In this document: piece after piece, positions 13,637 through 48,117 of the stretch | How positions within the stretch are numbered: position 1 is the stretch's first letter | Layout of the letters: each line of letters opens with the position of its first letter | NCBI GenBank assembly: GCA_032718865.1 | Contig: JALUTQ010000046.1 | Span: 1,922,001-1,986,000 of the forward strand | Origin: Tilletia caries | Lineage: Eukaryota > Basidiomycota > Exobasidiomycetes > Tilletiales > Tilletiaceae | Direction: 5' to 3' | DNA: 64,000 nucleotides | Program-made: the position numbers and the translations under genes | Notes under the pieces: generated by a model | What the model saw: the letters and a program-made list of their open reading frames with translations, nothing else | The model's database searches: none | Told to the model about the DNA's origin: nothing

Positions 13637-16600
13637 AGTGAGTATGTTGCTACTCACCCCTCTTCCCACCTTCTTCATCATGACCTCGTCTCTGTTCCTC
13701 TCCTCCTTCTTCTTCTCCAGGCTCCACTCTCCAGTCTCCAGCACGTCTTTCAATCATGGAACAGGTACGTATTTCATCACTCGTGACCAGATCGCGCGTC
13801 TGTAGTTCTGTGCTCCATGCTGACCCCGTTCCTCGTCCTCCGCGAGCTCGGAACACTGTTCATCAGTCCTGCACCCTTATGAGGGCTCTTCCATCCTTTT
13901 TCTCCTCCCTGACGGATGTTCCGTCCCTGATATATGCGCTCCACCATTTTCCGGCGGTTTCCGCAAGTCGCTGATGGCTAACCTTTCTTTCCTTTTTTGA
14001 TTCTTCCCGTTCCCATCGCTGACCCTGGATCCTTGTCGACTAGCTTGACGATCTTTTGCTTTACACCGCTACTGCTCACCTACTGCTCACAACGCTGACA
14101 GCTCTCTCACCCTTGCCTTCCATACCCACTTCTTCTTTGTTGTGAATTGTGATTGCAGATGTGATTTACTGTTGCTTGCGCACACTGATATTCTTGCTCT
14201 CAAGCGTCTCCGAGGCGCCCATCAACACTCCAGGCTCGAGATGGACATGGTTTCGGCATGCATGTTCATTCGTGGGTGAGTCCGAGTGTGGATTATGCCT
14301 TTCCCCTTTGACACCACTTCCCTCGACTGACGATTCGCCTTTAACATATGGACTCCTACTTTCCTGTCGCCCCTCAACTTGGATGAGTGTTAAAGCTCAT
14401 GAATCATGATACTACCCTTAACCACCTACTCATCGTGCCAGTCCTTCTTCTTTACAGTGCAGGCCCATACAGCATACATTGGTGGAGACAATCAGAGGAG
14501 CGTCACAGGTCACTGAACATGTGAGTGCATGCTAACATTTTTCTTCTCCGTCGTCTGTGCTCGCTGGGCGCTGACCTCCACTGATATTTCATTGGACTGC
14601 TACGATTGACGCTAGATGCTGATTGCTGACACTCTTAAGTTTCACCCTTTCATGAGCAGCTCAAGCTTGATTGTTCATGATCTCGGCTCCACTGGTATGG
14701 TCCAGAACGAAGCTCGGACGGCCGCAGTATCAGGGCCACAGCGACGTATCCACACTGCCATGCGAGGACTCGTCTGTCGTCATGCTGCCTCCGCTCCGAA
14801 GCATCAACCTCATCCCATGGGCTAGTGTCGCGCCGACGGGCGGATTCGACGATGCTGCTGGAGACGAGGACGAGAATGACTCCCTCATCTGCTCCTCCGA
14901 TCCGGAGAGCGAATCACGGCCGTCGGCCTTCTACCATTCGACAACGGCATCACACCACGCTGCTGTGGCTGGATGGGAAGAGACGAGTCGAAAAGTTCAC
15001 CAAGCTGCCACGTTCGAAACTAGGCCGTCCTCAGAGTCCTCGTTGCGATACGGATACACGTCGTCGTCGCCGAGATTGCATGCGAGGGTTACAGCCAGTA
15101 ACTAGTAAGTTCCTCGTCGCCCGTGCTGCCGGGAGTCGCAGTCGATGAAGCCGTCGTATCCGCCGCCCTCTCCTCATCATCTCCAGCAGCAACAGCAGCA
15201 ACAGCCCCTTCCGCCCCGCGTCTCTTACTTCCGGCCTCAGGTCACGTCTCGTCGTAGTCGTGACTCGTGCATCACGGCTGACTCCTCTCCCGTTATTCTC
15301 GTGTCCTTTGACCTTCTGATTTAGGCTGGCGCTGACATGTTGGTGCTAACTATTCTCTTCATGCTGAGCTCTCCTTGCTGACTCTCACCTCCATTGCTTA
15401 CTGACGGTCTAACACTCATCTCCCTTTGCTAACGATTATTCGCCTTCTTCATGAATCACTATTGACTGCCAAAGTGCCAACTTGCGCTTAACGGCTGACC
15501 CTTCCTCCCTCTTCAGCTCTCGTACCCTTCGGAAGGCTCGAATCGACTCACTCTCGTTCTCAACCCCCCTCCCCCCGACTCACAGAAAAAAGCTCATGAA
15601 GGTTAGGTGAGTAGATGAAGGCGGACAGCATACATCCGAAAACACCTCCTCCAGGGCCCAGGCAGCTGACACAAAATATCATCCTCGAACACCATATCAC
15701 TGCATTACGTTTGTAGATATCTGAATGTCTTACGCGACAAGCAGCCCAATCGTTCGTGAGTGCTTTATTGTGCGCTGGCCGCTGCCTTTACACTGCTGCT
15801 TTCTGCTCACTCCCCGTTGGCATTCCTTCAAACATCGACATTTCGACATTGAGGCCTTCCCCTCCACTTGCCGCAAGTCACAGGTTGTCGCCCCTCAAGT
15901 CTCAACTTGGATGAGTGTTAAAGCTCATGATACTAACCTCAACCACCTACTTATCGTGCCAGTCATTCTTCTTCACAGTGCAGGCCATGTACAGGTCACT
16001 GAACACGGAGTGCTAACATTTCCTTTCCCGTTCATCTCTGTCCCCGCTGGGCGCTGATCTCCATTGATACTTCATCTGCACTGTTACAATTGATATTGGA
16101 TGCTGACTGCTGACCCACTTAAGCGTCACTCTCTCATCAGCAGGTGAAGTTTGATTGACAGTGATGATTGATGCTCCTCTGTTCTCCAAGTTTCATCAAC
16201 AACAGCGCTCACACACTTCCTCCCTTTGCTTTCTTATTTTGCCTTACTCCTCTCATACTTACTTCTGAGTTCTGCAGCGTATAGGTCCTCCATCTCTCTG
16301 TCCATTGCTGGCCTGTGCATCAACGATGAAGGCACAACGTGACGATACAAGGTGATTGTCAGAGTGTATATGCTCAAGGCTCAGTGATTCTGATCGTCGT
16401 CTTGCTGACGCTATTATGCTCCTCCCTCTTCTCCTCGCAGTCTTCTCATTGTCATTCAGGTGACAGGTGTAGTACATATGCGCCATATCGCTGTCACTGA
16501 CTCATCCTCGTTTGCATTACAGATATCTGATCAGTGGGAGGTTGGAGATGGAAGCTGGATTGATGGGAGAGGTGCGACTGTGCGAGGTTGGGACTTGGGA

Positions 16601-16690
16601 GTGGGGGGGATGAGGAGGTGGCAGGCAGAGCAGGGGAGGTGGGAGAGGACTGCTGGAATACAAGACCGTGACCGAATCGTGAATGCAACG
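13637..16690. repeat. E1 right arm: non-coding with internal direct repeats
   Basis: About 3 kb without recognised genes. A segment at about 14371-14665 (containing CTCAACTTGGATGAGTGTTA) is repeated imperfectly in the same orientation at about 15899-16165. A second unit at about 15320-15415 repeats 12650-12760. An open stretch at 14825-15110 encodes an acidic Ser-rich peptide with no family I recognise. The 16690-16933 end is rich in CGCGTCTG/CAGACGCG words, the subterminal repeats of E1. Confidence 0.55.
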
Positions 16691-16942
16691 TGTCTGAGCC
16701 GCGCCTGAAGGGAAACCTGAGGAGCAGCTGTGTAAGATAATCAGTGATCGCTCCTCAATCGCGTCTGAACCGTGACTGAGCCGAGCGCTGGACGCGGTTG
16801 AGCGTCGAATTCCTGACCACCGCGCCTGTACCGCGTCCAAAGCACGGCCGAGTCACGGCTGGGCGGCAACCGAGCGGCGTCTGGCCCTCTCGCGTCTGTA
16901 CCGCGTCTCAGCCGCGGATCAGGGTTTACTGTGTGCTTTAAC

Positions 16943-19900
16943 CTCTGGAAATTTGGTTTGGCACCTTTTGGGCACCTGAGACGCACCAAGTGGCGCCTGA
17001 GACGCGCCAAAACTCCCTGAGCGTCTGAAGCGCGTGACTCGGCGCGCCTGTGACGCACTTCATCGGCGCCTTCGTCGAGTCGCCCAAATCTCAGAAGCGC
17101 CTCATCGGCGCCATCGTCGAGCTCACGAAGACCAACATTTCACTCACCACAAGTCGTCCAGCACAAGCGCCTGAAAGACGCCTCCAACGCACCACAACAG
17201 CAAACCGATCTTTCAACACTGCGCATTTTGGCGCCCCACCTCTCCCGCCCCTCGACCTCTTCGAGCTCCCACGGCCCAACCACCCACAACCATCCTCTCA
17301 GCCAGCATCGGACACCGATCAGAGGTGAGTGCTGTGACTTCTAAGATTAAAGATGCTGCAAGCTGTCAGCTGCTTTTTTGACGACTCGCCTCTCTTTCTC
17401 TATGCGCAGATGGACCAGCGCCGGCATCGAGATCGACCGGTCTCCTGCTGCTGTTTCGGGCGCTGTGCGGGACGGTCAGAGCGGCCCAAGAAGGTCATTG
17501 CGCGCACGAGGGACAAGCACCTTGCGGCCGACGAAGAGACTCTCATCAAGGCTCAAGAACGAGGGATCGCGCCGCCCCCCGAACTGGAGAGCGCCATCGA
17601 CAACAACCGCTGCTCCATCGTGGCCGAGGCAATCGAAGACTCCTCTTCCAGCTCCGAAGCTTCCGACTATAGCGAGGATCCTCCCCCCAGCAGCCTCAAC
17701 TCCTTCCAAGACCCTCGCCTCAACCGAGAAGGCCAGGACTCCGCTTCTCTTCAAGACAATCAGCAAGATCGTGACGATCCCTTCCCAGACGACTTGCAAG
17801 ACGACTTCGCCTTCTTCGACGACTTCGACTTCTTCGATCAGCCTCTTCAAGATCAAGCATCATCGACGGACAGCGACTTGGCTGAGGAGGATGTCGGCGA
17901 AGACGGCTTCGATGACGAAGAAGACGATTTCTTCGACGACGAGGAGATGGAGCGAGAGGTGGACCGGCTGGTCGAAGGCGAGCTATACCTACATGGGGGC
18001 GAAGAGGATGAAGAGCCGGAAGAGGGATGGGAAGGCAACGGCGGGAATCTTGAAGGAGAGCCACAGCAACACCCACACAGCCAGAGTCGACATGGGCAAG
18101 ATCTCTTCGATGCCCTCGCAGGAGACCATCGTCCTGGTGCTCGTCCGGACAACCCCCCCGACGCTGACAATTCAGCATTTGCTTTCCGGGAGCGGCTTAC
18201 TCCCAGCGAAGAGGCATCGGTGCGGCACCTTCGGACCTCACTGCGAACCACAGCAACGAAGCCCAATATCGAGAGTTCGGCAAGGATAAGGAGGCGATGA
18301 ACCCAGCAATCACCATCTACGGCCAAGCTAGAACAACCACGCTCATCAGAGCACTTACCCGACTTCGAGAGTACAGATGGGACATGTGCCCGGACTCTTG
18401 CATGGCCTTCATAGGCCCTCACGCGCACAAGACTCGCTGTACCGCCCACCGAAACGGCATACGATGCCGACAAGCAAGATACGATGACGCGGGGAAGCCG
18501 CGGCGGCAATTCACAACCTTTTCGATTCTTCCAAGAGTCCGAGCACGGTTCGCGTCTGGCAAGGGCTCGACTTATCTACACGATCTCGCCGAGTATTCCG
18601 ATGGGACGTGGGGCACTGAGGAGCATCGCTTCCGCGACTGGTCGTCGGCCTCCATTCACCGGACTTTATGAGCCAAGGGCCTCTTCGACGATCCGCGCCA
18701 CGATGCCTACATCCTCAGCGTCGACGGTGCTCAATTCATCGACAAGCGCGTCTCGAACGGCTGGATCGTCATGCTGACATCTCTCAACTCTACCCCTTCC
18801 GGACGTTTCCGCCACTCAGAGACCGTCATTCCCACTGTCATCCCTGGCCCCAACAATCCGGTCGACCTCGACTCGTTCTTATATCCAATCCTTCAGCAAT
18901 TTGCGCGCGCGGCGCGAGGACATTGGGTCTGGGACGGCGTAAGAGAGGAGTGGTTCCTTTGGAAGGCATGGCTTATAGCGGCAGCGGCGGATCAACCAGG
19001 GTCCTCCAAGATCAACCACATGACCGGACCGACAGGATTCTGCGGCTGCAAGACTTGTCACATGGAGGCGAACTACGCCTACGACGGCCAACATGTCGGC
19101 TACTTCCCTCTCACCACAGTCAACGGCGCAGCTCGGAGCAGAGATCGACCAAGAAGCTACGATCCGCGTAACCTTCCTCACCGCACCGACGACTCGTATG
19201 CGGAGGATCTAGCCGAGGTAGCTGGCACTCTTACAGCAGCAGAGCGCAGAGAGGCAAGGCGGGTCACAGGAGTCGGAGAACGACCTCTTCTTTGTTTCTC
19301 CCCGGCCTTCACAATGCCGACATTCTTTCCCCCGGACGTTTTCCACCTCTTCGGCTCTAACGTTCCTTCACTGCTGTGGAGCACGTTCACCAATCATCAA
19401 GACGGCGACCCCTTCACACTTTCGGAAGAGCAGCAAGAGCTCTTCGCATCCATGCTCGAATCCTCGGGCTCCGACTTGCCGACATCTTTCTCAGCCTCCA
19501 AGCCCCGAGACCCTTGCACCAACTCCAACTCGCACTACAAGATGTTCGAATGGAGTCTCGTAACCTATCTCTACTTGCCATCCTTCCTATATGCCATCGA
19601 TGCGCCTCTCCCGGTCGTCAAGATGGTCTGTGATCTAACAGAAGGAGTTCGATTGGCAATGTCCTCTGATGGAGTGCTCGCCCCGGACCTTCAAAACATG
19701 GAGGATCGCTTTGTGGACTTCGTGGAGGCATGGGAGCGTCTGTACGTTCGCCGGCAGCCACATCTCCTATCTCGGGCAACGTGAGTTAGCCTATCAACTT
19801 GCTTGCTTACCATCACCTACTGACTCTCAATATGCTCGGCCCTACAGTATCTCCATACACCAACTGCTTCACATCTCCGACTTCGTTTACGCTCACGGAA

Positions 19901-20236
19901 GCCCGCGGAACACCTCTCAAGCAAGATGTGAGCGTGAAGTGGGTCTACTCAAGCGTATGCTCCGATCGCACAAGCAGCCCTTCACCGGCATCATCAACCA
20001 CATCCGACAAAACGAGCACCTGCGACTACTCGACCTTCTTCTCGACGACGCAGAGGACAACGAAGACCGTCCGCCCTTGACTCTCAGCACCTCCATCAGC
20101 TCCAGGCACAGAGCCTTGACGCAGGTGGAGCAGAATATGGAGGTCCTTTTGATCGAGGGATTCCAAAGACAAGGCTTCATCCCAACTCCGCTTCCAGACT
20201 TCGTCCGCCGGGGAAAGATCAAGCTCAGTGCCAAGA
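16943..20236 (+). mobile_element. E2 left part: second Tnp2-type transposon, up to the inversion breakpoint
   Basis: Left end CTCTGGAAATTTGGTTTGG at 16943, preceded by CTTTAAC (16936-16942). The matching right end (CTCTAGAAATTTGGTTATG) now reads on the plus strand from 21317, preceded by GTTAAAG, the inverse of CTTTAAC. When the 20.3-25.8 kb segment is turned back, the two ends become a proper terminal inverted repeat pair with a 7-bp duplication. Subterminal DNA is packed with GGCGCCT/GCGCCTGAGACGC words. E2's terminal sequence differs from E1's although the transposases are homologous, so they are two related families. This part holds most of the E2 transposase gene. Confidence 0.75.
17410..20236 (+). 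pseudogene. E2 Tnp2-type transposase, N-terminal and core part
   Basis: Same family and layout as the E1 transposase. Cys-rich start SCCCFGRCAGR and KVIARTRDKHLAAD, a long acidic region with poly-Asp/Glu, then MCPDSCMAFIG, AYILSVDGAQFID, TVIPGPNNPVDLDSFLYP and MTGPTGFCGCKTC, then FFPPDVFHLFGSNVPSLLW. The start at 17410 directly follows an acceptor-like CAG, so a 5' UTR intron from 17323 is possible. Breaks: a 1-nt loss near 18235 (the family sequence moves from frame 1 to frame 0) and an in-frame TGA at 18669-18671, where E1 has a sense codon. An intron at 19781-19847 matches the E1 intron at the same place. The frame runs into MITE sequence after 20236. The true C-terminus lies on the other strand at 25708-25417. 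Confidence 0.8.
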
Positions 20237-20375
20237 AAAAAGCGCTCAAACTAGTAGTCACTATCTCAACTTTTCATAACTAAACTATACTTTGTCGGCC
20301 GGCTGAGACCTTCACTTTCACTTTCACTATACTTTGTCCGAAAAATTGCTCACTATCTTCACTTGCCGAGCTCTG
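20237..20375 (+). repeat. hAT-like MITE, truncated copy (left inversion breakpoint)
   Basis: These 139 bases are identical, in inverted orientation, to 25709-25847. The right edge is the element terminus (rc CAGAGCTCGGCAA), followed by TCTCAAAC at 20376-20383, the partner of the inverted GTTTGAGA at 26384-26391. The left edge has no terminus: homology starts in an A run inside the element, so about 535 bp of the MITE and a short piece of transposase code are missing on this side. Confidence 0.8.
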
Positions 20376-21316
20376 TCTCAAACACAATCAAAAAACACGG
20401 CATCCTTCCCAGTGACATTTGGAATGTTGATGAGATTGGATTTCGTGTCGGGGTGGGAGGAAGGCAGTGGATCGTCACCCTTTGCCCGTCGCGGGACGCA
20501 CACATTGCGAGCGAAACCTGCCGAGATTCAGTGACATGCATTGAGGCGGTCAGTGCGACGGGTCAACACATCGAGCCTCTCGTCATTCTCGCCGCAGCTC
20601 AACACTCGGAAGCCTGGGTCGACAATGACTTGGACGACGATACCCTCCTTGCCGTCTCTCCGAATGGGTACACCGACGATCTCATTGCCCTGAAATGGAT
20701 TAAACATTTGGGCGTTTCTAATGGCCGCCCCGGGGCGGCCCTCCAATTGAGCCCGCCCCCCCTAGCACCGCTGCTTTCCGAACCAAAAAAACCGCCCCGG
20801 TCTTCATAGCGTGATCACCAATCACCAACTACACTCTAACGTGTCGATATGCGAGCCGTGAGATAATTGAGACTTACGTAATGATCATGGGGGGGCAGAA
20901 ATTTTGAGGGGCATTGAAAGGTGGGGGGCGCGGGGGCGGGCTTAAGAACATTCTCCATACGTACCCGCCCCGGGGCGGCCAAAGGCTCCGAGCCGCCCCG
21001 GGGCGGCCATTAGAAAAGTCCTAAACATTTTGAGGAGAAGACGAAACGAATGACTAAAGGAGCGAAGCGCCTTCTCATCTTTGACGGGCATGGTTCACAT
21101 TGCACTCGGCAATTTCTGGCACACTGCGAGGCCAACAACATTCTGCCATTCAGCCTGCCGCCGCACTCATCTCATATCCTGCAGCCTCTCGATGTCGGTG
21201 TTTTCCAGCCGTATAAACACTGGCATAGGGAGGCAGTTGATGCAGCTACTCGTACCGGATGCACCAATTTCACGAGACGGAGTTCCTCGCAGCACTCCAC
21301 AGCATCCGGGTTAAAG
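20376..21316 (+). pseudogene. pogo-1 transposase, DDE catalytic part (inverted segment), interrupted by a MITE
   Basis: DDE_1 (pogo/Tigger/Fot1-like) transposase. After the TCTCAAAC duplication the frame reads TIKKHGILPSDIWNVDEIGF (first catalytic Asp in NVDE), VTCIEAVSATGQ, then ALKWIKH, where a 312-bp MITE interrupts. After the MITE it resumes at HFEEKTKRM with LLIFDGHGSHCTRQF (second catalytic Asp) and PPHSSHILQPLDVGVFQPYK. It stops at the E2 terminus at 21317. The N-terminal DNA-binding half lies on the minus strand at 26862-26384, and a small C-terminal remnant at 5607-5583. The original gene was on the minus strand and this part was turned by the inversion. It has no function as it stands. 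Confidence 0.8.
20710..21021. mobile_element. 312-bp Mutator-like MITE with 9-bp target duplication
   Basis: Flanked by TAAACATTT at 20701-20709 and 21022-21030. Terminal inverted repeats of about 31 bp begin GGGCGTTTCTAATGG (left) and GGACTTTTCTAATGG (right, inverted), differing at two positions. Each terminus contains the perfect 18-bp palindrome GGCCGCCCCGGGGCGGCC, and a further copy lies just inside the right end. The element has no coding capacity. Nine-base duplications and long terminal repeats are features of Mutator-like elements. Removing it restores the pogo-1 frame exactly (KWIKH into HFEEK). Confidence 0.8.
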
Positions 21317-21777
21317 CTCTAGAAATTTGGTTATGCACCATACGCGCACCTAACAGGCGCCTAAGAGGCACCTGTTTTTATACTAAGAAGTCTCTGGTGG
21401 AAGCGCGTCTCAAGCGCGTCTCAGGCGCCTCTGGACACAGATAGCGCCTCTGAGGCGCGTCCAATTCGCGCTTCAAAGGCGCCTCAACCGCGCCATCTGC
21501 ACACTACCAACGCGTCCTTCACAGGCGCTTCACAGGCGCTTCAAAGGCGCACTACATATCACATATAGGCATCGATAGAGCCACGGTGGCTAGTATGTCG
21601 ATTGAATCCAATGCCTCTACAATGTGATACCCTGGTCCTCCTCTCCATCTCTCCAACGCATCCAAGGGAATCCTCCTTCGCGCAGCAGCAGCAATAAGTA
21701 GTTCGAAGTTTGATCTGTGCAAATGTTCCGGTCAGTACTCGAAGCTCAGTGTCAACTTAGAAACCCACTCACCATCG

Positions 21778-24384
21778 CTAGTTGTCGTCCGCGTCGACCT
21801 TGTTCATCGCGGCGTAGAACTGGGCGGTGGTGATGGTGATCTTGTTGTTCTCGAAAGCCTTGAGGAGAATGTTGATGACGTCCTGCTTGTTTGCCCTGGA
21901 AGAGAAGTGGATGTCTCCCTGGCTGAGTAGTTCGCAAGCGGCCTTCTTGGTAAGTTTCTACAAACAGATGTAAGTGAGTGTATTTGTCAGTAAGCTGTCA
22001 ATCATAGAGCAGAGCAGATCCTCACCTTCAACGCATCTGCGGTCACGATTCCCTTGTTCAGGTTCTTCTTGACTCGGATCTGTCTCTTTGGTGCGGCGTC
22101 GGCCTCAGCCTGCTGAGAGTTGGATGCGGAAGCTTGCTGGTTGTTCGATGTGGAAGGAGTACTGGAGCTGCCCGTTGGGGCCTCGTTCCCGAGCGCGAAT
22201 GCTGACTTGATGAGCTCCGCGACCTGCTTGATGTGGTTGTGAACGAGTGGCTGAACCTCGCTAGTCGTATCCTTTGCAAGCTGTGACATCCCGATCGCCC
22301 ATATCCGCAGCAATGCAGACAGCAGACGGAGAGCATTTTTGATGCTTCCCCAAGCATTGATCCGCTTCAGGGTCGTCCGATAGTCAAAGCGGCCGATCTC
22401 TCTGTGGCCAAATCCCTGGCCAAGCTCGTCTTCGTCGTCGGTGTGATCCGGCGCGAGGTCCTCGATTCCTGAAAGCCAAACGTCGAACATCTTGTCCGCA
22501 GTCGCACGAGGTTCGTTACCGCAGCCGCACGAGGTCTCCAGCACCTCAAGAGCCTGCTCGACATCTGCACGCGGTGTGAGCGCAGCGAATCTCGAGGAAA
22601 GAGCGAGGCGGAGAGCAGCAACCGTGGGCACCTCGAGGCGCGAAGCATCTGCCTTCCGAAGAGCTGAGAGAGCAAGGAGCGAAGGACCGGCAGGTGCCTC
22701 CGCAGTCGATGTCGATTGGGCGAGAGGCTGAGGTGACGGAGCGGGCTCCTTTGCCATCAGCGTCGTCGAGCGATTGGGAAGCTTGAGGGATGCACCAACA
22801 TGGCGAGTCTTGAGCTGGGAAAGCACTATCAACAAGGCAAGCATGATCAGAAGTAAGAACAACAATCAACGCAAGCACGAGTATTGAAACTGACCCTTGG
22901 CAGCAGAGAGCTGGGGCGAAGAGGCGTCCTTCGTTCCAGAAGCGTCGGCATTGCTGTTTGAGATGTTCTTCAGCGGCGACGTGGAAGCTGGAGTGGCGAA
23001 ACCAAAAGGTATCAGACATTAGTACATTGAAGACCCCCTTCAAATTGCACACGTCGTGAAATTCGGAGCCTGTACCAGAGCCAAGGATCGTTGCATTATC
23101 AGCAGCTACGAAGGAATAAGAATGTCAGTGCATTTATACGTCCCAAACCGTACAGGAGAAGTCCGAAGACTCACCGCCAGAGGGAGTGTACGCGGCGATC
23201 TCCTCGTCGCTGTCGTCAATCAAGTCAGAAGCAGAGTAGCGCTGCTTGGCGATATCGTTCAACTTTTCGATGGGCGTCTTCATCTTCGGAGCATGCGATC
23301 GAGCCTCTGCAGATGGAAGGATGGATAATGGATCGTAAGCACTCAAGATCTCAGGGCAGGATGGAGACCTGATGTACTCACCGCGAGGCGGGTCGTCGTT
23401 CTCGCTGAAGTCGTCCTCATCGTCCTGGGAAGCAGATGCAGGCGCCTTCGCCTTTCCCTTCGCCTCCTTTGCTGATGTTTGGAGTTCCGGTGCTGTGTCA
23501 TGAGCCTTTCGTTTCTTGTTGCTCGAAGTAGAAGTGTGGGATGATGTTTGGCGTGTCGGAGCAGTGGCATTCGTCTTCCGGACCTTGCTGCTGGACGCCT
23601 GAGACGATGCCGGAAGTGACTGGTCTCCGTCGTTCTTGAGAGCTCTCGTCTTCTTAGACTTGAGCCACTTCCCATGCTTCTCGATCCACTTGAAGCTCTT
23701 GTAATGGTGTCGACCCCATGCGAGCTCCGGATGGTCGAGTTCAATGGCGTTGGCGATTTTGATGAGGGTAGTGATGTGGTTCTCTCGCCACCACGAGAAC
23801 TTTCGATAGTCGTCGCCCTTGAAGTCTTGCTCGTCTTCGGGGACGCGAAGCATCAGGTCGCAATGAAAGCGAACACTCCTCTCAATCGCGTCTGTTTGCT
23901 GCTTCGTAAGCACGTTGCCGTTTTCGTCCCGAGTGACAAAGGTCTTGCCGAATCCAGGGCATTCCTTCTTGGCATCTTCCTCGGTGAAGTACATCTTGTC
24001 CGGGTTGGGAAAGGTGGAGAAGTCTCGCTCGACCATCTCCTTCCTCCAAGCGGCCGAGCCCGGAGTTGCTTGGGGAGTCCAGGTTCCCGTGTTCGAAGAT
24101 CCCTGCTGAGCATGTTGGGGTTGCTGCGCATTCGTGGCTGGAGAGTGTGTTGCAACAGAAGCTGGCGAAGAGGCTGCTTCAGTCGGGCCTGGAGCGGGAG
24201 CAGGGGCGAAGGTTCCAGTCTCTGTGACTGGAGGAGCAGACAAAGTCGAAGCGAGCTCTGGATGGGCGGCAAGAAGGTTGTGGAGCATTTGAAGAGGGGT
24301 CATCCCCGAGCTCGCCGCCGCTGTTGAGCTCGTCGCGTTGTTGCCGAGCGAGTCGAGTCCAGGAAAGGGTGCTGGAGGCAGCAT
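21778..24384 (-). CDS. E2 second gene: conserved partner protein of Tnp2 elements
   Basis: Start MLPPAPFPGLDSL at 24384. A Pro/Ala/Thr-rich N-terminus is followed by a conserved region with DKMYFTEEDAKKECPGFGK and HHYKSFKWIEKHGKWLKSKK, and a Lys/Ser-rich linker with likely nuclear signals. The C-terminal core has DVWLSGIEDLAPDHTDDED, GFGHREIG and GSIKNALRLLSALLRIWAI, then a basic RIRVKK-like patch. The last intron is 21958-22025. The last exon (21957-21778) encodes KLTKKAACELLSQ and INILLKAFENNKITITTAQF, short helices like a SAP motif. At least four more introns lie between 23400 and 22800. Unlike the E1 homologue, no frameshift is needed. Function unknown; linkage to the transposase in both elements suggests a role in binding element ends or in regulation. 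Confidence 0.65.
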
Positions 24385-24733
24385 TGTAGTGTTGTTGTGG
24401 ATGTATGCGGGTGGATGTATGCGGTGTTGGGCCGGGTTGGGTCGGGTTGGGCAGAGTTTGGACCAGTCAATCGTGACTGAAAGGCAAAGGGACCAGAAAT
24501 CAGAATAACGGAGGGGAAACTATGAAATCGAGGAGAGCGTAGGGCTGGGATAGGTGTTGGAGTATACTCACGAGCAGTAAGGAGTGAGCCGAGGGTGGTT
24601 GAGTGGTGATGATGATTGGTGGTGGTGGACAGTGAGAGGAAAGATAGGGAAGGTGTGAGAGCATACAACCAGCTTCAAGCAGGCTCAGACAGCACAAACC
24701 ACGCCAATGAAAGCAAGCAGAACGTTTCGATTC

Positions 24734-25438
24734 TCAGCTCAGATCTGCGCAGCGAGCGAGCGTGACGGGCTCATCTATGAAGGAGAGAATGTGTAAGGAG
24801 AGCTCATACGGTAAGGCGGAGAGGAAGTCGACTTTGAGGTTGGGGGTGATGAGGCTCTGGAGATGGGCGAGTTCGCGTGCGGTGGAGAGGGGAATGAGCG
24901 CGGAGAGGAAGGCGAGTCGATCGGAGCGAGTGAGGGAGGGGAAGGTGTGAAGGAAGTGAGACTGGAGACTGTGCAACGTCCGCTCGTCCCGATCGGTATC
25001 CATGGAGATGAGGTCGGTTGCCGCGGCGATTCCGCTGAGCGACCCAATGACGGGCGTTAGCTTTGCGTCCTCCTGATGAGGCGGGGTGCTCGGCATCGCA
25101 GTGAACGAGTTGTCCAAGGCAGAGGAAGGGCCCGCGCCGGTTGCTGCGGCTGCGGCAGCTGCATCTGCGACGGCTGCCATGGCGCGTGCATGGGCGTGTG
25201 CCTGTGCGAGTCGGATTGCGTTTGCGGTGGGCTGTGGTGAGGGCGCGGGCGTGGGGGGTGAGATGGCGCGCGCGATGGCGGCTACGGATGCCTGCGACTG
25301 GTTCTGGTTGGCATTGCTACTCCCACCGCCGCCGCTTGTGCTGCTGTTGGGGAGATCTCCGGTGTTGGCGATGGTGATGCTGCTGCTGCTGGCGGCCGTG
25401 CTGACTGGGCGGGCGCTCAGACGTGTTCGGTAAGCCAT
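24734..25438 (-). pseudogene. Captured Cdc4-type F-box gene fragment inside E2
   Basis: The minus-strand frame begins MAYRTRLSARPVS, overlapping the last codons of the transposase in another frame. It runs through Ala/Ser/Gly-rich low complexity, then FLHTFPSLTRSDRLAFLSAL, STARELAHLQSLITPNLK and the F-box LPYELSLHILSFIDEP followed by VTLARCADLS, where a stop cuts it at 24734. This is the dimerisation helix plus F-box order of the Cdc4/Pop1-type SCF subunits that recruit Skp1. The WD40 propeller that should follow is absent. The fragment lies between the transposase and the second gene of E2, a place where E1 has only spacer, so it looks like host DNA picked up by the transposon. Whether it is expressed as a bare F-box peptide cannot be told. 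Confidence 0.7.
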
Positions 25439-25708
25439 GAGAGGTGCCGCAGGACGTAGATGTACCCAACTCACAGATCCCAATTGGTTCGATAATGGCT
25501 CGAACGTCCAGAATGCTGTAACGCTCTTGCCAACGCCCTCTGATGATTCCATCGGCTGCCACAACATCTTCCAAGATCCGGAATACCACGAAAGCCCGCC
25601 CGGCTTCCTCCTCTTCCTCGTCGTCGTCATCGTTCCCATCCCCTCCTTGGCCCGCATTCACCTCTCGTGGTCGTTCGTCGAAGCTGAGGAAGTACACGGC
25701 CTCACCGT
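25417..25708 (-). pseudogene. E2 transposase C-terminal part (inverted)
   Basis: On the minus strand just after the MITE edge the frame reads GEAVYFLSF, an acidic linker, FVVFRILEDVVAADGIIRG, YSILDVRAIIEPIGICEL and, one frame over, YIYVLRHLSWLTEHV before a stop at 25417. This matches the E1 transposase end (WVLVDIKDIVEPIGILEL, DYVYILRKPTWY). About 20 residues present in E1 are missing at the MITE junction. The frame change after GICEL is a further lesion. Confidence 0.75.
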
Positions 25709-26383
25709 CAGAGCTCGGCAAGTGAAGATAGTGAGCAATTTTTCGGACAAAGTATAGTGAAAGTGAAAGTGAAGGTCTCAGCCGGCCGACAAAGTATAGT
25801 TTAGTTATGAAAAGTTGAGATAGTGACTACTAGTTTGAGCGCTTTTTGCGACCGTGCCGGCCGCATAGTAGACCGCGGGTGTCCCTAATTTTTTTCATCA
25901 GAGCTCTGCCAAGTCACTAGGTAGTGAAGATAGTTGCAAAAGTTTCATAAAGTGATCTGAAATGAGGAGTCTCAGACAGATTTGGTCGCAGATCGTAGGT
26001 AAGTAAACGTATAGGGCTTCAAAAAGCATGACATTTACAAAAGCTAACCAGAAAATACCAGTAACTCATAATCCAATATCAAGACTACAAAGTCTTGATA
26101 GTAACTGGGTAGTAAACTATTAGTGACTTTCTTGACTGGATAGTTACTTACAAGTGACTACGTTAACTTGGCAGCACTACTAGTGATAGAAAGTGGCTCC
26201 AAGTTTAACATGTAGACAAACCTCACTATCTCCATACTTTCTTCACTTTCCCGGCCCGGCCAAAGTGAAAGTTCACTATCTTTTTTTCGACGGCTCAGAA
26301 GCCAAAGTATAGTGAAAGTTTCACTACTAGTTCTCACTTCCAAGTTACAAAGTATAGGAAGTGAACAAAGTTGCCGAGGCCTG
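25709..26383 (-). mobile_element. 675-bp hAT-like MITE, full-length copy (right inversion breakpoint)
   Basis: Ends CAGAGCTCGGCAA at 25709 and, inverted, CAGGCCTCGGCAA at 26383. The interior is AT-rich with many TCACTAT/ATAGTGA and ACTTTCAC words and no ORF. CAG-type termini and 8-bp duplications fit hAT elements. The flanks do not match each other (CTCACCGT left, GTTTGAGA right). GTTTGAGA instead pairs with TCTCAAAC at the left breakpoint, as expected if two separate insertions exchanged flanks. Confidence 0.75.
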
Positions 26384-26862
26384 GTTTGAGAGCTTGACGA
26401 AAAACCAGTGGACCGTGGTCCAGTCCAGCGTCATCCGCGACAGCTCTCGCGACTTTTGACGAACGTAGTGCAGCTCCTCATGTCGGTCGATGAAATTTTT
26501 CACCCAGTTCTTGCTGACAATGGGGACCTTTGAGGCGTCTCCTGTCCATGCTTCACGGAGTATTTGATTTGCCGAGGTCTCGATCAGCCCGGTACGCGCA
26601 GATATTTCTAGTGTGTCGAGGACACCAATCCAGGCCACGAGCGCGTTCTCCTGCGAGTCTGTGAGGAGCCGATTAGTCGACTCGGCGGCCGTGTTGATTT
26701 ACTCTTGCCTCCATGAAAGCGGCGCCAGATTCGCAGCCGGGCCACCTCATATTTCTTTGCAAGTGCTGCGAAATTCGGCTGCTTCCCGCTCAGAACCTGC
26801 GCCTTTGCTTCTTCCACCGCGCAGTCGACGGCTTCTTCCTCATTTTGGTACCGGTCGGACAT
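26384..26862 (-). pseudogene. pogo-1 transposase, N-terminal DNA-binding part
   Basis: Start MSDRYQNEEEAVDCAVEEAK at 26862, a psq-type helix-turn-helix region (NFAALAKKYEVARLRIWRRF), then after a 1-nt frame change near 26720 the partner frame TNRLLTDSQENALVAWIG, SANQILREAW and WVKNFIDRHEELHYVRQKSR. This is the bipartite HTH_psq plus CENP-B-type order before the DDE domain in pogo/Fot1 transposases. The frame ends at the hAT-like MITE. The catalytic half was carried away by the inversion and now starts at 20376 on the plus strand. No terminal inverted repeat of the element was found upstream. Confidence 0.75.
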
Positions 26863-27488
26863 TGGGTTTTGAAGATTGAATGCTGTAAATTGGTTGTCCG
26901 ATGAGATGGATGTATGTACAAGGAGCAGGAGGAAGAGTAGCAATGGACGCGTTGTGGATTTCGAGTTCTTTGAGCTTGGAGGCCCTCTCCTGTGGAGAGG
27001 GCTTTTTATGTGTCAGCACAAAAATTGGAACTACGTTCACCATCGTTGGGCCCGAGTAGCGATGGTTCCGACTGGCAGAGAAACTCTGCCCTCCTCGAAA
27101 TTCATCTCAGAGTGAAGGAGTACCCGTGCGCGCGGGTCTACACCGCCCAACTGACCGGTCCTCGTCGTCATGACGCGCATCAAGGCCGGAAGTGATAAAA
27201 GGAAACTAACCCTCCTCCATAGCAGCCGCCCTCCCTCACCACTGGTCGGCTGCGCGCGGCGACTATACTTCATGCTCGCGTTCATGCTCGAAAGTGAGCT
27301 CTTGGTATCTAATCTAATCTACGCGAGGTCGCAGCATGACATTCATTCATTCATTCGCGTGTGACTGAACCTTCGCTTCGATTCTGTGATCTGTCTCGCG
27401 CTCGCGCTCGACTTCGGCCTTCTCGAGCTCATCGCCAGCATCGACGCTCTGCCACGCATTCATTCATTCGATCGCGGTCTGATTTCCG
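26863..27488. other. Spacer between pogo-1 and the C1-THF synthase gene
   Basis: No gene is recognised. A GC-rich hairpin (GCCCTCTCC / GGAGAGGGC) sits near 26983-27002. The last 200 bp should contain the promoter and 5' UTR of the C1-THF synthase gene. A short (ATTC)n run lies at 27340-27355. Confidence 0.4.
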
Positions 27489-30802: not shown

Positions 30803-30933
30803 GGGGAATCGCGGACGATTTCTCCTCCTACCTCCCGACTGACTTTGTCTGCCTCCTAACCACACATGCGTAATTCATCTACCCGCTTTCGTTAGAGCCC
30901 ACTCCCCTTACTCCCTCCAGCAATTACAGTATA

Positions 30934-31637
30934 CAATTTTCGCCAAATATGTCAGATTGCGAGGCCGGAACGAGAAGGGTTGCGAACGATGCTACGAGCG
31001 GGAAGGGGAAGAGAGCGAGGATACATGGGTAGCAGCTGGGAAGACAGACGTTGGTGAAGCAAATACGTTTGAATCGACTGATTACTGACGGACAAGGGGA
31101 TATGTACCGTATATGTCGTGGATGCAGATCGTGGGAGAAGACGTTTGCGTGCTACTAGAGGTATGGGATCGTTATCGATAGTCTGAGTAAAAAAATTGGT
31201 GAGTGGGTAGGGTATCTCGAGAGGGGCTCAGTTTCCTCAGCAGGAAGCAGCAGCCGCTCCGGCAAAGTGCTTGCGGGATCGACCCCGTATTGTCACAGGC
31301 GCCGAGTCGAGCGTGGCGAGGAGTGTGCCTAGACCGGCAGCAGCTGTCGGCTGCTCGCTCGTCTTGCTGTTGCCCACAGGCGCTGATGAGTTGTGCGCGC
31401 TGCTGCCAAAGCTGCTGCTCCCGGAGTACGAGGACAAGGACGAGGCTGAGGACCGTCTCCGCTTCTTGAGCGGCGGTGGTGGGGTGTCGCCCTTGCCATC
31501 GAAGAAGCCTTCGTCCTGCTCGGACGCCGCGTAGATGGAGATACCTGTTGGAGAGTTGAAGGACAGTAGTATCAGCCAAAAGAAACGTTCCTTTCGAGCG
31601 CTGGGCACATTGCCAAACTCACGGAGGAAGAAGTATT
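30934..31637 (-). pseudogene. Partial duplicate of the NDT80-like gene 3' end
   Basis: This block is nearly the same as 47828-48523, with scattered substitutions and small indels, including a GGGAAGGGGAAGAG insertion near 30995 and the loss of one ACAAGG unit. It holds the last exon of the NDT80-like gene (TPPPPLKKRRRSSASS, a basic nuclear-signal-like patch, then TIRGRSRKHFAGAAAASC) and its downstream flank. Similarity ends sharply after GTATT at 31637, next to the phosphatase gene. The DNA-binding domain is not included, so this is a non-functional piece. Confidence 0.85.
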
Positions 31638-36124: not shown

Positions 36125-36137
36125 TAGGAGTCAGTGG

Positions 36138-36367
36138 TGTCATAGTTTGGGGTCTGGCGGCTTCACCCGTCTGTCCAGTCTCGTTGGTTACTCCTTCTGT
36201 GCTCTGTGAAAAGTCTCTTCTCTCCTTCCATTTCTTTCTTGCAATCAACAACCATCTACTTCCATTTTGTCCGAGTGCACCCTCTCCCTCTCGCGTGCAC
36301 ACACAGCAACTCTACCACTCTCGGTGAGTAGTCGTGCGGCAGTCACAGCTGCCCTCGAATAGTGACA
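36138..36367 (+). repeat. 5' LTR of the copia element
   Basis: 230 bp with TGTCA/TGACA ends. It contains the retrotransposon promoter region, but no TATA box is obvious. Identical to the 3' LTR as read. Confidence 0.9.
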
Positions 36368-36562
36368 GGTTATGAGCCCATTACTCTGCTGTCGCCCGAG
36401 AGGGGGTGAGATTTCGGACACTTGGCTTACACACTCTTTTACTTCGTCTCTCCCTTCCGTCTTTCCTCTTCCTCGGCGCCATTACGAACTTCGGACTGAT
36501 CATCCGCCCACACACTTACGTTAATCACGACACTTACGACATATCAAGATCAATCCATCATC

Positions 36563-37983
36563 ATGGCAGACTCGTCCTTCAACCCCGTTCCCTCCGACGG
36601 CTCTTCTGCCGGCAAAAACCCCCCAGGTCCAGATCCGCGGAGTCTCTGCCTACGAAAGCGCTCTGAGGATGTTCACCATCGCTCATCGCACGAGGAAGCA
36701 GCAAGAGATTCGGGTGTCCAAGGCCCATGTCACCTTGCTCGAAGGCAAGAACAACTGGGAAGTTTGGCGCATGCGTCTGGCCACCATCCTCCAGCCCGTT
36801 GCCGGTGGTCGACTCTGGCATCTCATGCTCAACCACCCATCCACCACAGTTGAGGCCTACCGCCACATACTCGCACCGGAAGACGACAAGCCGGTCGACT
36901 TCGAAGAAGCGAACGCCATCCGCGGTTTCGATCTCGCTGACGTTGCCAATGCGATCAACCAGACCTTGACGGACCGCATAGCCGAGGACGTCAACCCTCC
37001 AAGCGAGGACTTCCTTATTCCTGCAGACGGACAGGTCATATGGAACAAGCTCGTCGACAAGTTCGCCTCTCAAGATATCGCCTCACTTCAGGAAGCCGAA
37101 GCCGAACTCTCGTCGTTCAAGCTCGGCAATCGGACAGCTGTAGAGGTCGGTCGCGATCTCCAAGGCATCTTCTCCCGCATCTTCAACGCCGGAGGAGGTG
37201 CAGTTCAAGAGCACCGCAAGATTGGCGCCGTGCTGAAGTGATACACGCAATCTCCCTTGATGAACGACACCAGGGCGGCCATCCAACAGACCTGGTCGAA
37301 CAAGCACGAATTTACCTTCGACGAGGTTGTAAAGCGGTTCGCTGCCGAAGAGGCGCTGTTGGGTGTGCACAGGCAGAGTGAGCCTGAAAGCTCGGACGGC
37401 GCTCAAGCATTGCGCATCCAGCACGGTTCCTCCATGCCTCAATCATCGTCGCAGAAACAGCCCTCACAGCAGCAACAGACCGGAGCAAACAGGCCCAACA
37501 ATGCGCGTCGCAACAAGGCTAAAACGGGCTCGAAGTGCAATTGGTGCAACATTGTCGGCCATATGGGCTCCGACTGCAGGAAGAGGCGTGATGGCCATCC
37601 CCCGCACCCTCAAAGCTACGCTGCCTCACAGGGATGGACCAATCAGCCACTGCATCAGCTCAATGCAGGTTACCCACAGCCTCAGCTTGTCCCTGCTCCT
37701 TACGCTGTCGGAGCGCGCGCGATGATGGTACACCCCGGCATGATGCACGCCACTGCCCTGCATGCTTCTCATTTCGGTGGTTACGACCACCCCGGCCCCT
37801 ACGTCTACCCTGCATACGCAGCGCCTGTCCCCTGCTCAGCCTCATCATGGCGGGTACACCATGCCCCCGCCGAGTCTCGCAAACCGCATCAGCGAATATC
37901 CGGTGAATACGACCCCGTCGCTCAGCCTGGTACAGCGACTCAGCGAGGCACCTGCAGACATTGTTTCGGGCCGTCCTTATTAG
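36563..37983 (+). pseudogene. Copia gag region, broken frames
   Basis: Gag starts MADSSFNPVPSDGSS at 36563. At an A5C6 run (36614-36626) the sequence moves to the frame holding HVTLLEGKNNWEVWRMRLA, the usual copia gag signature. An in-frame TGA sits at 37239-37241. The frame then continues through KHEFTFDEVVKRFAAEE to the zinc knuckle CNWCNIVGHMGSDC (CCHC), which packages RNA. A further frame change near the C run at 37826-37830 leads to a Pro-rich tail and a TAG at 37981-37983, before the protease. Whether any of these stops is a natural gag/pol boundary cannot be told from one copy. Confidence 0.8.
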
Positions 37984-40900
37984 GAACTCGCGGCCCTGTC
38001 TTCGGCATCGCTGCCTCGGCAAGGCCCAGATATAGGTGTTCCGTTGAAGTGGATCCTCGATTCGGGTGCCTCATCTCATATGACGCCCAACGGAGAACTC
38101 TTCTCGGACATTCAGCCGGACTCTACCACAGTCAAAACGGCCGATGGCAAGAGGCTGCGCGCTCGCGGGCGTGGCTCCATCACCCTCATTACGACCAATC
38201 CTACTTGGAACGAACTCATCCTTCACGACGTTTTGCATGTCCCCGAGCTGGATTGCAACTTGGTTTCGGTCGTCAAACTGAACCAAGACTACTTACGAGT
38301 CGAGTTTACCGAACAACTCGAAGCTTTGATCACGGACCCCTCCCAGCGAGACTTCACCATCTCAGCGACCTGGTCGTGGCAGTCCCAAGCGTATCTCCTC
38401 CCCGTTGTGGGATCCGTGGAGAGCGCATACGTTTCCGCCTTCGTCCTTCGTGACGATGAGCGCAGTGCGTCATCTGGAGCATCGGAGCTAGCTACTCCAA
38501 CTCCTTCTGACCAAGTGTTTCGGCTTTGGGTATTGTGGCACCCACGACTCGGCCATCTGGGCAATTCGTCGTTGCCTATCCTAGCCCAGAACAGCGTCGG
38601 ACTTCCCGCGTCGCTGATCAAGAGGAGCGCCACCGGGGCGTTCCAGTGCGAAATTTGTTCTCTCACGAACATCAAGAGGTTGCCGTTCTCCGCCTCCACC
38701 ACCAAGTCGACACGACCCCTCGAGCTCGTCCACGCCGACCTCACCGGGCGCGTGATCTGCAAGTCGTTGGGCGGTGCGGAGTATCTGGCGATTCTCGTGG
38801 ACGACTACACCCGCATGCTGTGGGTCCTCCCCCCTCGTTCAGAAATCCGACTTCGTCCTCCGCTTCATCGAGTGGCGCGACCAGGTAGTGCCCTACAAGG
38901 GTCCTGTTGCTTGCCTTCGCACGGACGGCGGCGGCGAATTCAACAACGCTGCTCTCCGAGCTGCACTCGCAGGAGCGCGCCATGAGCGATCATGCGCATA
39001 CACGTCTCAACAGAACGGTGTGGCGGAACGGTATGTAGGGATAGTCAAGTCGGTGATGCGGCCACTCCTCCATGGACGGCACCTGCCGTTGGAATACTGG
39101 GCCGAAGCAGCAGCGACGGCTGCCTACGTTCGCAATCGGTGCCCCAGTACTGCCAACGACGGCAAGACCACCTTCGAGCTCTGGCACGGAACCAAGCCCA
39201 ACCTCGCCGATCTCCGGGTCTTCGGCTGCTTGGCGTTCCCGATGCTGTCCACCAAGGCTCGAGAACACAGCCTTGCTGTGCGCTCTCGGCCAGGTGTGTT
39301 CATTGGTTACGATACGCTTCAAAAGGGATATCGAATTCACTTTCCGGACACCAAGGAACTGGTGGTCACCCGCAATGTCGATTTCCACGAAGACAAAGGT
39401 TACGATTTCTCCTCCCTCGTAGTCGCCGAGTCTGAGCCACCACTTCCCCCAGAAGTCGTCGTCAGCTCGGCTCCACGGCCTCCTGGCCTCCGGCCCCGCC
39501 TAGTTGTCATCGGCCCCAGGCAACCGGACCCTGCTCCGTCTGCTTCGGTCGACGTGGAACTGCCAGCAGCAGCAGCAGCACCTCCACCAGCAGCACCTCC
39601 ACCACTGCCACCGGTATCAGCACCGGCTCCGGGCCCGGCTCCAGCTGCTGCCCCAGCCGCTCCGTCAGGGGCGCCACGTTCCTCTGCCTCCGTCCCTTCC
39701 GCGTCGGTGGGAGCTCAGGCACCAGCAGCAGCGCCAGGCGCACGGCCTCGTCCTCCTCCCACAAGGCAGTACCAGACGCGCCAGCATACGAGCAGGATGG
39801 AGCAAGGACGGCAGCAGCGTGAAACGTCTCGCGCTGTGCTATCAATGTCCGACTCCTTCGCATCTGCCTTCCACGTCCAGCTCTCGGCTGACGGCATCGA
39901 ACTTGAGCCTAAGACACTCAAAGACGCCATGCGCCGATCGGATTGGGCGCAGTGGCTTCAAGCCATGCGCGAGGAGATGGAGTCACATTCGGAGATGGGT
40001 ACTTGGGTATTGGAGAAAGTTCCAGATGATAGGGAACTAGTGGGCAGTCGGTGGGTGTTTAAATTGAAGTTGGACTCCGAAGGCGCCGTCTCGAGGTACA
40101 AAGCTCGTTTGGTCGCTCAGGGGTTTAGCCAAATATTTGGGGTCAACTACAACGAAACCTATTCGCCGGTCACCCGCTTCGTCACCATTCGCACCCTGCT
40201 CGCCTTGGCCGCCTACTTCGGATGGCAAATCCACCAGCTGGATGTGGTCACTGTCTACCTCTACGGGAAACTGGAGACGCCCGTCTACATGCGACAGCCT
40301 CCCGGCTTCGAGCTGCCTGGTCAAGAGCATCTCTGCTGTCGGCTCATTCGTTCACTGTACGGACTCAAACAGTCCGGCAGGGAGTGGTACTTTACCCTCC
40401 GCGCGGCGCTTATCGAGCTCGGCTTCGAACAGTCAGCAGCAGACCCAGCTATCTTCATTTTTGGGCAAGGCACTTCCGCCATCATCGTCGCAGTCTACGT
40501 GGACGACGTTCTCGTCCTCGGAAGCAACACCGAGGAGATCGATGCAGTCAAGACTGCACTGGGCAAACGGTTCAAGATGAAGGATCAGGGGCAAATTGGG
40601 CACTTCCTGGGGATGAAGATCGAGCGCAGCGAAGATTCTCGGTCCTTTTTCATCTCTCAGTCAGCCTATATCCGATCGATGCTCGAACGATTCAACTACA
40701 AGGACATCAAGGCAGCGCCCAGAACCCTTGACCCCAAGCAGAGGCTTCAACCATACGACGGCAGTGCTTCGGATGAAGATCGTCGCCGCTTCCAAGCCAT
40801 GCTCGGTTGCCTCATGTGGCTCGCCCAGGCGTCGCGGTCCGACCTTTCGTATGCGGTCTCTACGTTAGCCAGGCACGCCTCGAACCCTGGTCCCCAACAC

Positions 40901-41452
40901 TTCGGGTGCATCAAGCGCACGATGCAATACTTGGCGGGCACAGTCGAATTCAAGCTCCACATCACCGCTAATTCAGACGAGGACATCGTCGCCTACTCCG
41001 ATGCCGACTTTGGTGGCGATTTCTCTGCCAAGTCGACTTCCGGGTGGTGTGTGTCTGTACACGGTGCCACAGTCGCTTGGGGCTCGAAATTACAAACCCT
41101 CGTCGCAGATTCTACTGCACAGGCAGAGCTCATCGCCGTCTGGCAAACTGCTCGGGAGGTTCTCGCCCTTCGACACTTCTTCGAAGACCTCGGCCTCCGC
41201 CAAATCAACGCGGGTTCCCCTACTGTCGTTCATTGCGACAATCAACCCGCCATCCACATTCTTTCCAACCCTGTCAGCAACGGCTTGACCAGGCACATGG
41301 AGCGCAAGTACTTGGCTACTCGCGAGCACCAAGAACGAGGCCTTGTGCATGTCACCTACATCAACACCAAGGTGAATCCAGCGGATATGTTCACGAAGGC
41401 CCTCATCCCAGCAACCTTCCAACAACATCGCTCAGCCATCGGCCTACGATAA
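37984..41452 (+). pseudogene. Copia pol region: protease, integrase, reverse transcriptase, RNase H
   Basis: Protease motif WILDSGASSHM near 38050, the pre-integrase zinc-like segment (LWHPRLGHLGNSSL, CEICSLTN), and integrase (HADLTG, DDYTRMLW, LRTDGGGEF). A frame change in the C6 run at about 38828-38833 lies inside the integrase. From there one long frame runs to 41452 with integrase C-terminal motifs, a Pro/Ala-rich linker, reverse transcriptase (YVDDVLVLG) and RNase H (YSDADFGGD, HCDNQPAIHI), ending 38 bp before the 3' LTR. Apart from the C-run break, the enzyme motifs are complete. Confidence 0.88.
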
Positions 41453-41490
41453 CAGTCACAACGATCACGACGACGGCCGAAGGGTGGGAG

Positions 41491-41720
41491 TGTCATAGTT
41501 TGGGGTCTGGCGGCTTCACCCGTCTGTCCAGTCTCGTTGGTTACTCCTTCTGTGCTCTGTGAAAAGTCTCTTCTCTCCTTCCATTTCTTTCTTGCAATCA
41601 ACAACCATCTACTTCCATTTTGTCCGAGTGCACCCTCTCCCTCTCGCGTGCACACACAGCAACTCTACCACTCTCGGTGAGTAGTCGTGCGGCAGTCACA
41701 GCTGCCCTCGAATAGTGACA
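41491..41720 (+). repeat. 3' LTR of the copia element
   Basis: 230 bp, same sequence as the 5' LTR, preceded by a purine tract and followed by the AGTGG duplication. Confidence 0.9.
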
Positions 41721-41738
41721 AGTGGAACCTGACCATAC

Positions 41739-47827: not shown

Positions 47828-48117
47828 CCTACAATTTCGCCAAATATGTCAGATTGCGAGGCCGGAACGCCGAACGAGAAGGGTTGCGAACGATCGAGGA
47901 TACATGGGTAACAGCTGGGAAGACAGACGTTGGTGAAGCAAATACGTTTGAATCGACTGATTACTGACGGACAAGGGGATATGTACCGTATATGTCGTGG
48001 ATGCAGATCGTGGGAGAAGACATTTGCGTGCAACTAGAGGTATGGGATCGTTACTTATCGATAGTCTGAGTAAAAAGTGGTGAGTGGGTAGGGTATCTCG
48101 AGAGGGGCTCAGTTTCC

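What the first reader, a model, noticed from the sequence alone, without database searches (positions are those of the whole stretch)
20237..26383. Inversion between two copies of a hAT-like MITE has reciprocally split two unrelated transposase genes
20237-20375 and 25709-25847 are identical over 139 bp in inverted orientation. Left of the first copy is the E2 transposase N-part, and right of it the pogo-1 catalytic part. At the second copy, minus strand, the flanks are the pogo-1 N-part and the E2 transposase C-part. Flipping the segment in between restores both genes, makes the E2 gene order the same as in E1, and pairs the E2 ends and their 7-bp duplication. The 8-bp duplication of the MITE (TCTCAAAC / GTTTGAGA) is also split across the two breakpoints. 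Several independent signs point to one event.
Basis: partly seen in the sequence, partly recalled or inferred. Interest (0 to 1): 0.9.

Follow-up and report, generated by a model that had tools for sequence, protein, structure and literature searches.

The report
Small transposon-flanked inversion in Tilletia caries
In the wheat bunt fungus, a 5.3-kb piece of a pile of nested jumping genes lies backwards between two copies of a small mobile element, an ordinary kind of rearrangement that can be read unusually clearly here.

Summary
The inversion is real. An 8-bp duplication (TCTCAAAC/GTTTGAGA) and a 7-bp one (CTTTAAC/GTTAAAG) are each split across the breakpoints. An E2 paralogue on C27 is co-linear and about 99% identical to both halves outside one patch. 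A pogo paralogue on C21 shows the empty MITE site. Pogo-1 pieces tile a C36 relative in order; only the middle piece is reversed relative to N- and C-parts.

Corrections: (1) The 139 bp is not the MITE but the right end of a 675-bp element; copy 2 (25709-26383) is complete, copy 1 lacks the left part. (2) Turning the segment back would restore neither gene: E2 lacks 84 bp at the break and pogo-1 carries further insertions. (3) The MITE had split pogo-1 before the inversion.

The genome matches Tilletia caries TC1_MSG, assembled from 317x nanopore reads, so misassembly is unlikely. Likeliest mechanism: ectopic recombination between inverted MITE copies; aberrant hAT transposition is a serious rival, and no uninverted allele of this locus was available. 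New instance of a known kind. The in silico flip was referred.

The parts
16936..16942 (+). E2 target-site duplication, left copy (CTTTAAC)
   Evidence: the C27 copy of E2 has its own 7-bp duplication (ACTCATG on both sides in E2 sense), so 7 bp is not peculiar to this copy
16943..20236 (+). E2 element (Tnp2-type), N-terminal half with left terminus
   Evidence: Pfam Transposase_21 E=1.1e-9; matches C27:748416-751590
20237..20375 (+). breakpoint 1: right 139 bp of the hAT-like MITE, left part absent
20376..20383 (+). MITE target-site duplication, right copy (TCTCAAAC)
   Evidence: single TCTCGAAC (one base different) at the empty site of the C21 pogo copy
20376..25708 (.). inverted segment: pogo-1 catalytic piece plus E2 C-terminal half
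20376..21316 (+). pogo-1 catalytic piece (DDE_1), reversed relative to the pogo-1 N- and C-parts
20707..21024 (.). another short repeat with 33-bp inverted ends (91%) nested in pogo-1; AAACATTT at both edges
21310..21316 (+). E2 target-site duplication, right copy, reversed (GTTAAAG)
21317..25708 (-). E2 element, C-terminal half with right terminus and further reading frames (one with an F-box-like match below its cut-off)
25709..26383 (-). breakpoint 2: complete 675-bp hAT-like MITE (ends CAGAGCTCGGCAAG / CAGGCCTCGGCAAC)
26384..26391 (+). MITE target-site duplication, left copy, reversed (GTTTGAGA)
26384..27056 (-). pogo-1 N-terminal part (HTH_Tnp_Tc5) and 5' terminal inverted repeat; TA at 27057-27058

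Best explanation
A Tc1/mariner-type pogo element (pogo-1) was hit by several insertions, among them a 675-bp hAT-like MITE (8-bp duplication TCTCAAAC) and, further 3', the Tnp2-type element E2 (7-bp duplication CTTTAAC). A second copy of the MITE sat in E2 in opposite orientation and had lost, or later lost, its left 536 bp together with 84 bp of E2. Homologous (ectopic) recombination between the two MITE copies turned round the 5.3 kb between them (20376-25708). Shown here: the inverted arrangement, the identity of the elements, both split duplications, the missing left part of copy 1 and the missing 84 bp. Inferred: that a MITE copy was in E2 before the inversion, and that homologous recombination was the agent. 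I put the inversion itself at about 0.95; the figure below is for the full mechanism.
For: 100% identical inverted 139-bp arms at both breakpoints. Copy 2's left 8-bp flank pairs with copy 1's right 8-bp flank, while neither copy has a matching pair of its own; 5 of 6 other copies fetched with long flanks have a flush 8-bp pair. E2's 7-bp duplication is likewise split. C27 holds an E2 copy in the uninverted order, both halves equally close: 98-100% in 300-bp windows except three windows of the N-half. C21 holds a pogo copy with N-part and catalytic part abutting at the empty MITE site. The pogo-1 pieces, each searched apart, tile the C36 relative L112 in order in their best frames (N 491-778, catalytic 788-1102 and 1106-1394, C 1410-1965); N and C read on the minus strand, the middle on plus. 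TA lies at both outer ends of pogo-1, about 31.7 kb apart. The MITE end next to E2-C is the exact family terminus, and the 8-mer beside it has A at position 7, as 19 of 34 other sites do.
Against: Two MITE copies are seldom identical over the 139 bp: 7 of 465 pairs, and 2 of 30 other copies equal copy 2 (8 of the 38 copies elsewhere were dropped because they did not align over all 139 bp). Conversion during recombination could explain the identity but is not shown. No site that separates the long from the short form (at my 60% threshold) lies inside the 139 bp, so chimerism of the two copies, the usual proof, cannot be tested. The left flank of the E2-resident MITE, where its own duplication should be, is gone. 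139 bp is a short tract for recombination if the truncation came first (recalled). No allele of this locus from another strain was available.
Confidence: 0.5

Rival explanations
1. Aberrant transposition: after replication, the left end of the MITE on one sister chromatid and the right end on the other acted as one hybrid element and inserted into E2, inverting the interval and leaving a MITE copy at each breakpoint; the left joint failed or was later deleted, losing 84 bp of E2 and 536 bp of the MITE.
For: Needs only one earlier MITE insertion. Predicts identical copies, as seen over all 139 bp. The MITE terminus joined to E2-C is exact, and the E2 8-mer ACGGTGAG has the A at position 7 that the family favours; its score is reached by 7.7% of random 8-mers. 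PMC2775673 (passages) says that copies are identical under hybrid element insertion and chimeric under ectopic recombination.
Against: The diagnostic left joint is gone. Gene conversion can also make copies identical. The target-site profile is weak. No hAT dimerisation-domain match was seen between paired ends of this family, being compared by eye only.
Confidence: 0.3
2. Non-homologous inversion by staggered breaks: nicks 139 nt apart in the pogo-1 MITE, filled in, give inverted duplicates; the break in E2 lost 84 bp.
For: Would explain in one event the identity, the missing left part of copy 1 and the E2 loss. Inversions from staggered breaks are described in the literature (introduction passage of PMC12368964).
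Against: One of the nicks would have to fall by chance exactly at the MITE terminus.
Confidence: 0.13
3. The assembly is wrong at the repeat and the uninverted order is the real one.
For: Inverted repeats are classic misassembly sites; no reads are held here.
Against: The genome matches TC1_MSG, made from 317x nanopore plus Illumina reads; 139 bp, or 675 bp, is short for such reads. Misjoining at a repeat would not by itself remove 84 bp of E2 or the left part of copy 1 (inference).
Confidence: 0.04
4. 20237-25847 is one 5.6-kb element with 139-bp terminal inverted repeats.
For: Identical inverted ends.
Against: The sequences just outside do not match each other; the interior is parts of two elements whose other parts lie outside it; the 139 bp is the end of a longer family present elsewhere.
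Confidence: 0.01

Closest known systems
Drosophila buzzatii inversion 2z3 made by Galileo copies (PMC2775673; abstract passage and further passages seen)
   Same: Two copies of a DNA transposon in opposite orientation at the breakpoints, with target-site duplications exchanged between them.
   Different: There a chromosomal inversion with both copies large and shown to be chimeric; here 5.3 kb inside a transposon nest in a fungus, one copy reduced to 139 bp, only one of the two MITE duplications readable, chimerism untestable.
Atlantic cod inversions with hAT-family MITEs at breakpoints (PMC12368964; abstract and introduction passages seen)
   Same: MITEs of a hAT family at inversion breakpoints.
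   Different: Tandem arrays at haplotype inversions in a fish; here single copies, with exact duplications readable.

Membership tests
inversion by ectopic recombination between transposon copies | homologous copies in opposite orientation at both breakpoints | tested here: met
   139 of 139 bp identical, inverted; copy 1 lacks the left 536 bp
inversion by ectopic recombination between transposon copies | target-site duplications exchanged between the two copies | tested here: inconclusive
   met for the pogo-1 duplication; the E2-side duplication cannot be seen because the left flank is missing
inversion by ectopic recombination between transposon copies | both copies chimeric | tested here: inconclusive
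   no site separating the two forms at my threshold within the 139 bp
inversion by ectopic recombination between transposon copies | uninverted order at the same locus in a relative | tested here: inconclusive
   shown for paralogues of each element, not for an allele; T. laevis P0002 stops before the junction
hAT-like MITE | 8-bp target-site duplication | tested here: met
   5 of 6 copies elsewhere fetched with long flanks; L008 has none
hAT-like MITE | short terminal inverted repeat beginning CAG | tested here: met
   CAGGCCTCGGCAAC / CAGAGCTCGGCAAG; that CAG is typical of hAT is recalled
hAT-like MITE | mobilised by a hAT transposase with the same ends | tested here: inconclusive
   74 PF05699 matches in the genome; none seen between paired ends listed, compared by eye
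pogo (Tc1/mariner) element | HTH_Tnp_Tc5 and DDE_1 domains, terminal inverted repeats, TA outside | tested here: met
   that TA marks this superfamily is recalled
Tnp2-type (Transposase_21) element | Transposase_21 domain | tested here: met
   38.3 bits, cut-off 28.6

The most novel reading that the evidence does not exclude
The inversion was made by hAT-type aberrant transposition, a hybrid of MITE ends from two sister chromatids inserting into a neighbouring element, so that a non-coding MITE mobilised in trans is itself an inversion-making device in a plant-pathogenic fungus.
Probability: 0.3. Interest if true: 0.45.

Novelty: new member of a known kind. Interest (0 to 1): 0.27.

Why it matters
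It is a small, cleanly readable case of a transposon-flanked inversion in a bunt fungus, in which target-site duplications show the order of events. It gives a pair of junctions with which to ask whether short MITE copies reshape Tilletia genomes, and whether recombination or aberrant transposition does it. It concerns transposon genes in a nest; no host gene was shown to be altered.

Tried and rejected
Tried without result: sister-strain proteins across the junctions. The search with the junction-1 frame gave 2 hits among 131 candidates: P0002 (T. laevis, 99% over 52% of the query), which stops before the junction, and P0011 (58%). The junction-2 frame gave none among 47 candidates. Chimerism of the MITE copies could not be tested: of 32 copies elsewhere aligned (7 long, 25 short; 6 of 38 dropped), 14 separating sites were found, all left of the 139 bp; one site inside (position 110) is T in 6 of 7 long and 11 of 25 short copies, and T in copy 2. 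The target-site profile is weak: only position 7 is informative, and left-out members score about zero at the median.

Considered and rejected: one 5.6-kb element with 139-bp ends (see rivals); E2 halves from two different copies (against it: split 7-bp duplication, and equal closeness of both halves to C27 apart from the patch at about 18443-19080).

Searches of print, by the words given: Tilletia with genome assembly and transposable elements, 21 papers held all terms; MITE, inversion breakpoints, ectopic recombination, 4; staggered breaks with inverted duplications, 4; Galileo, 7; hAT, fungus, inversion, 4. I saw listings for these and passages of four papers. The word 'inversion' does not occur in the held main text of PMC9172201 or PMC10684912.

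Full report
Source. The window lies at C40:1922001-1986000 of a 38.1-Mb genome in 40 held contigs. The best 11 of 17 protein hits to the E2 transposase bear Tilletia names. Two contig lengths, 1,798,756 (C36) and 2,689,501 (C7), equal the N50 and the largest contig published for Tilletia caries TC1_MSG, assembled from nanopore reads (317x) and polished with Illumina reads (PMC10684912, passages). The paper gives 46 contigs and 38.18 Mb, the held copy has 40 and 38.10. That T. indica, of the same genus, stands on control lists for plant pathogens is recalled; I therefore joined and mended nothing and compared every half apart.

The repeat. 20237-20375 and 25709-25847 are identical over 139 bp in inverted orientation. 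The genome search listed 40 places (40 of 49 candidates scored): these two and 38 elsewhere, all 38 of which I fetched. In 35 of the 38, and at copy 2, the similarity goes on leftwards beyond the 139 bp; in 3 (L032, L045, L046) it stops inside, by truncation or interruption; L046 has a matching left end about 2.6 kb away. The element at copy 2 is 25709-26383, 675 bp, with ends CAGGCCTCGGCAAC and CAGAGCTCGGCAAG. Of the six copies elsewhere with long flanks, one (L006) is of this long form (98.8%) and five are of a shorter form of roughly 570 bp; five of the six have a flush 8-bp duplication and one (L008) has not. So the family is a hAT-like MITE, but the 139 bp is only its right end.

The MITE duplication. 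Copy 2 has TCTCAAAC on its left and E2 sequence on its right; copy 1 has E2 sequence on its left and TCTCAAAC on its right. The pogo copy on C21 runs through this place without interruption, N-part (90%) and catalytic part (96%) overlapping by a single TCTCGAAC, one base different; beyond the point that corresponds to 20669 that copy no longer matches. The MITE therefore went into pogo-1, and its two flanks are now 6 kb apart on opposite strands.

E2. It begins at 16943 after CTTTAAC and ends at 21317 (reversed) after GTTAAAG; the C27 copy has its own 7-bp duplication, ACTCATG. Both halves match that one copy: the N-half at C27:748416-751590, the C-half in pieces at 742738-748331, C27 having about 0.44 and 0.72 kb extra within the C-half and lacking about 0.1 kb of the N-half. 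In 300-bp windows the identity is 98 to 100% in both halves except for three windows of the N-half (77.7, 79.3 and 96.7%). On C27, 84 bp lie between the points that correspond to 20236 and 25708, and 4 of the 11 named Tilletia proteins also align across this stretch at 35-44%. The window lacks them. Turning the segment back would restore the order, not the gene.

Pogo-1. Its 5' terminal repeat and N-part lie at 26384-27056 on the minus strand. Its C-part lies at about C40:1918124-1918766 and the outer part of its 3' terminal repeat at 1917374-1917469, left of the window, the C-part reading on the minus strand too. The pieces, searched apart, tile the C36 relative L112 in their best frames as N 491-778, catalytic 788-1102 and 1106-1394, C 1410-1811 and 1858-1965; weaker matches in other frames were also listed. 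Only the catalytic piece, 20376-21316, reads on plus. TA stands at both outer ends, about 31.7 kb apart. Among the insertions between them are E2, element F (right end at about 16933) and a second short element at 20707-21024. Pogo-1 was thus interrupted more than once, independently of the inversion.

Mechanism. Inverted copies with an exchanged duplication are the pattern used for Galileo inversions in Drosophila buzzatii (PMC2775673, passages). That paper separates ectopic recombination, which leaves chimeric copies, from hybrid element insertion, which leaves identical ones. Here the two copies are identical over all 139 bp. Among 31 copies complete over the 139 bp (copy 2 and 30 of the 38 elsewhere; one pair shares its flanks and is probably one duplicated insertion) 7 of 465 pairs are identical, and 2 of 30 equal copy 2. 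But the 14 sites that separate long from short forms all fall left of the 139 bp, so chimerism cannot be seen, and conversion could have made the copies alike. On the E2 side the exact MITE terminus stands beside ACGGTGAG, which has the A at position 7 found at 19 of 34 other sites; the profile is weak, and 7.7% of random 8-mers score as well. This speaks mildly for a transposase-made joint, whether an older MITE insertion or the inversion itself, and against random staggered breaks. I rank ectopic recombination first on precedent, aberrant transposition second, staggered breaks third; the first two are not separated by anything that I could test.

Limits. No reads and no sister-strain DNA at this locus were available. 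The near-identical sister protein P0002 of T. laevis stops before junction 1, and no protein across junction 2 was found. The age and frequency of the inversion are unknown. No gene outside the transposon nest was shown to be affected.

Noticed in passing
18443-19080: A patch of E2 of about 640 bp that is only about 79% identical to the C27 copy while most of the rest is about 99%; looks like gene conversion from another Tnp2-type element in one of the two copies. Neither version is clearly closer to the Tilletia relatives compared.
   Followed up: partly
14001-16933: Element F: copies on C36, C21 and C39 about 99% identical, others on C19 and C32 about 90-93%; the five compared end at the same point, right next to E2's left duplication. 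Its left end was not determined.
   Followed up: partly
20707-21024: A further short repeat family with 33-bp inverted ends and AAACATTT at both edges, inside the pogo-1 catalytic piece, with many matches in the genome.
   Followed up: partly
36137-41723: 234-bp direct repeats at 36137-36370 and 41490-41723, 99.6% identical, 5.35 kb apart: possibly the long terminal repeats of a young retroelement.
   Followed up: no
30932-31637 and 47830-48524: A 0.7-kb direct repeat, 91% identical.
   Followed up: no
L097 1501-2295 (C40, left of the window): The 3' terminal repeat of pogo-1 is itself interrupted: its outer and inner parts are about 0.65 kb apart with a 14-bp overlap.
   Followed up: no
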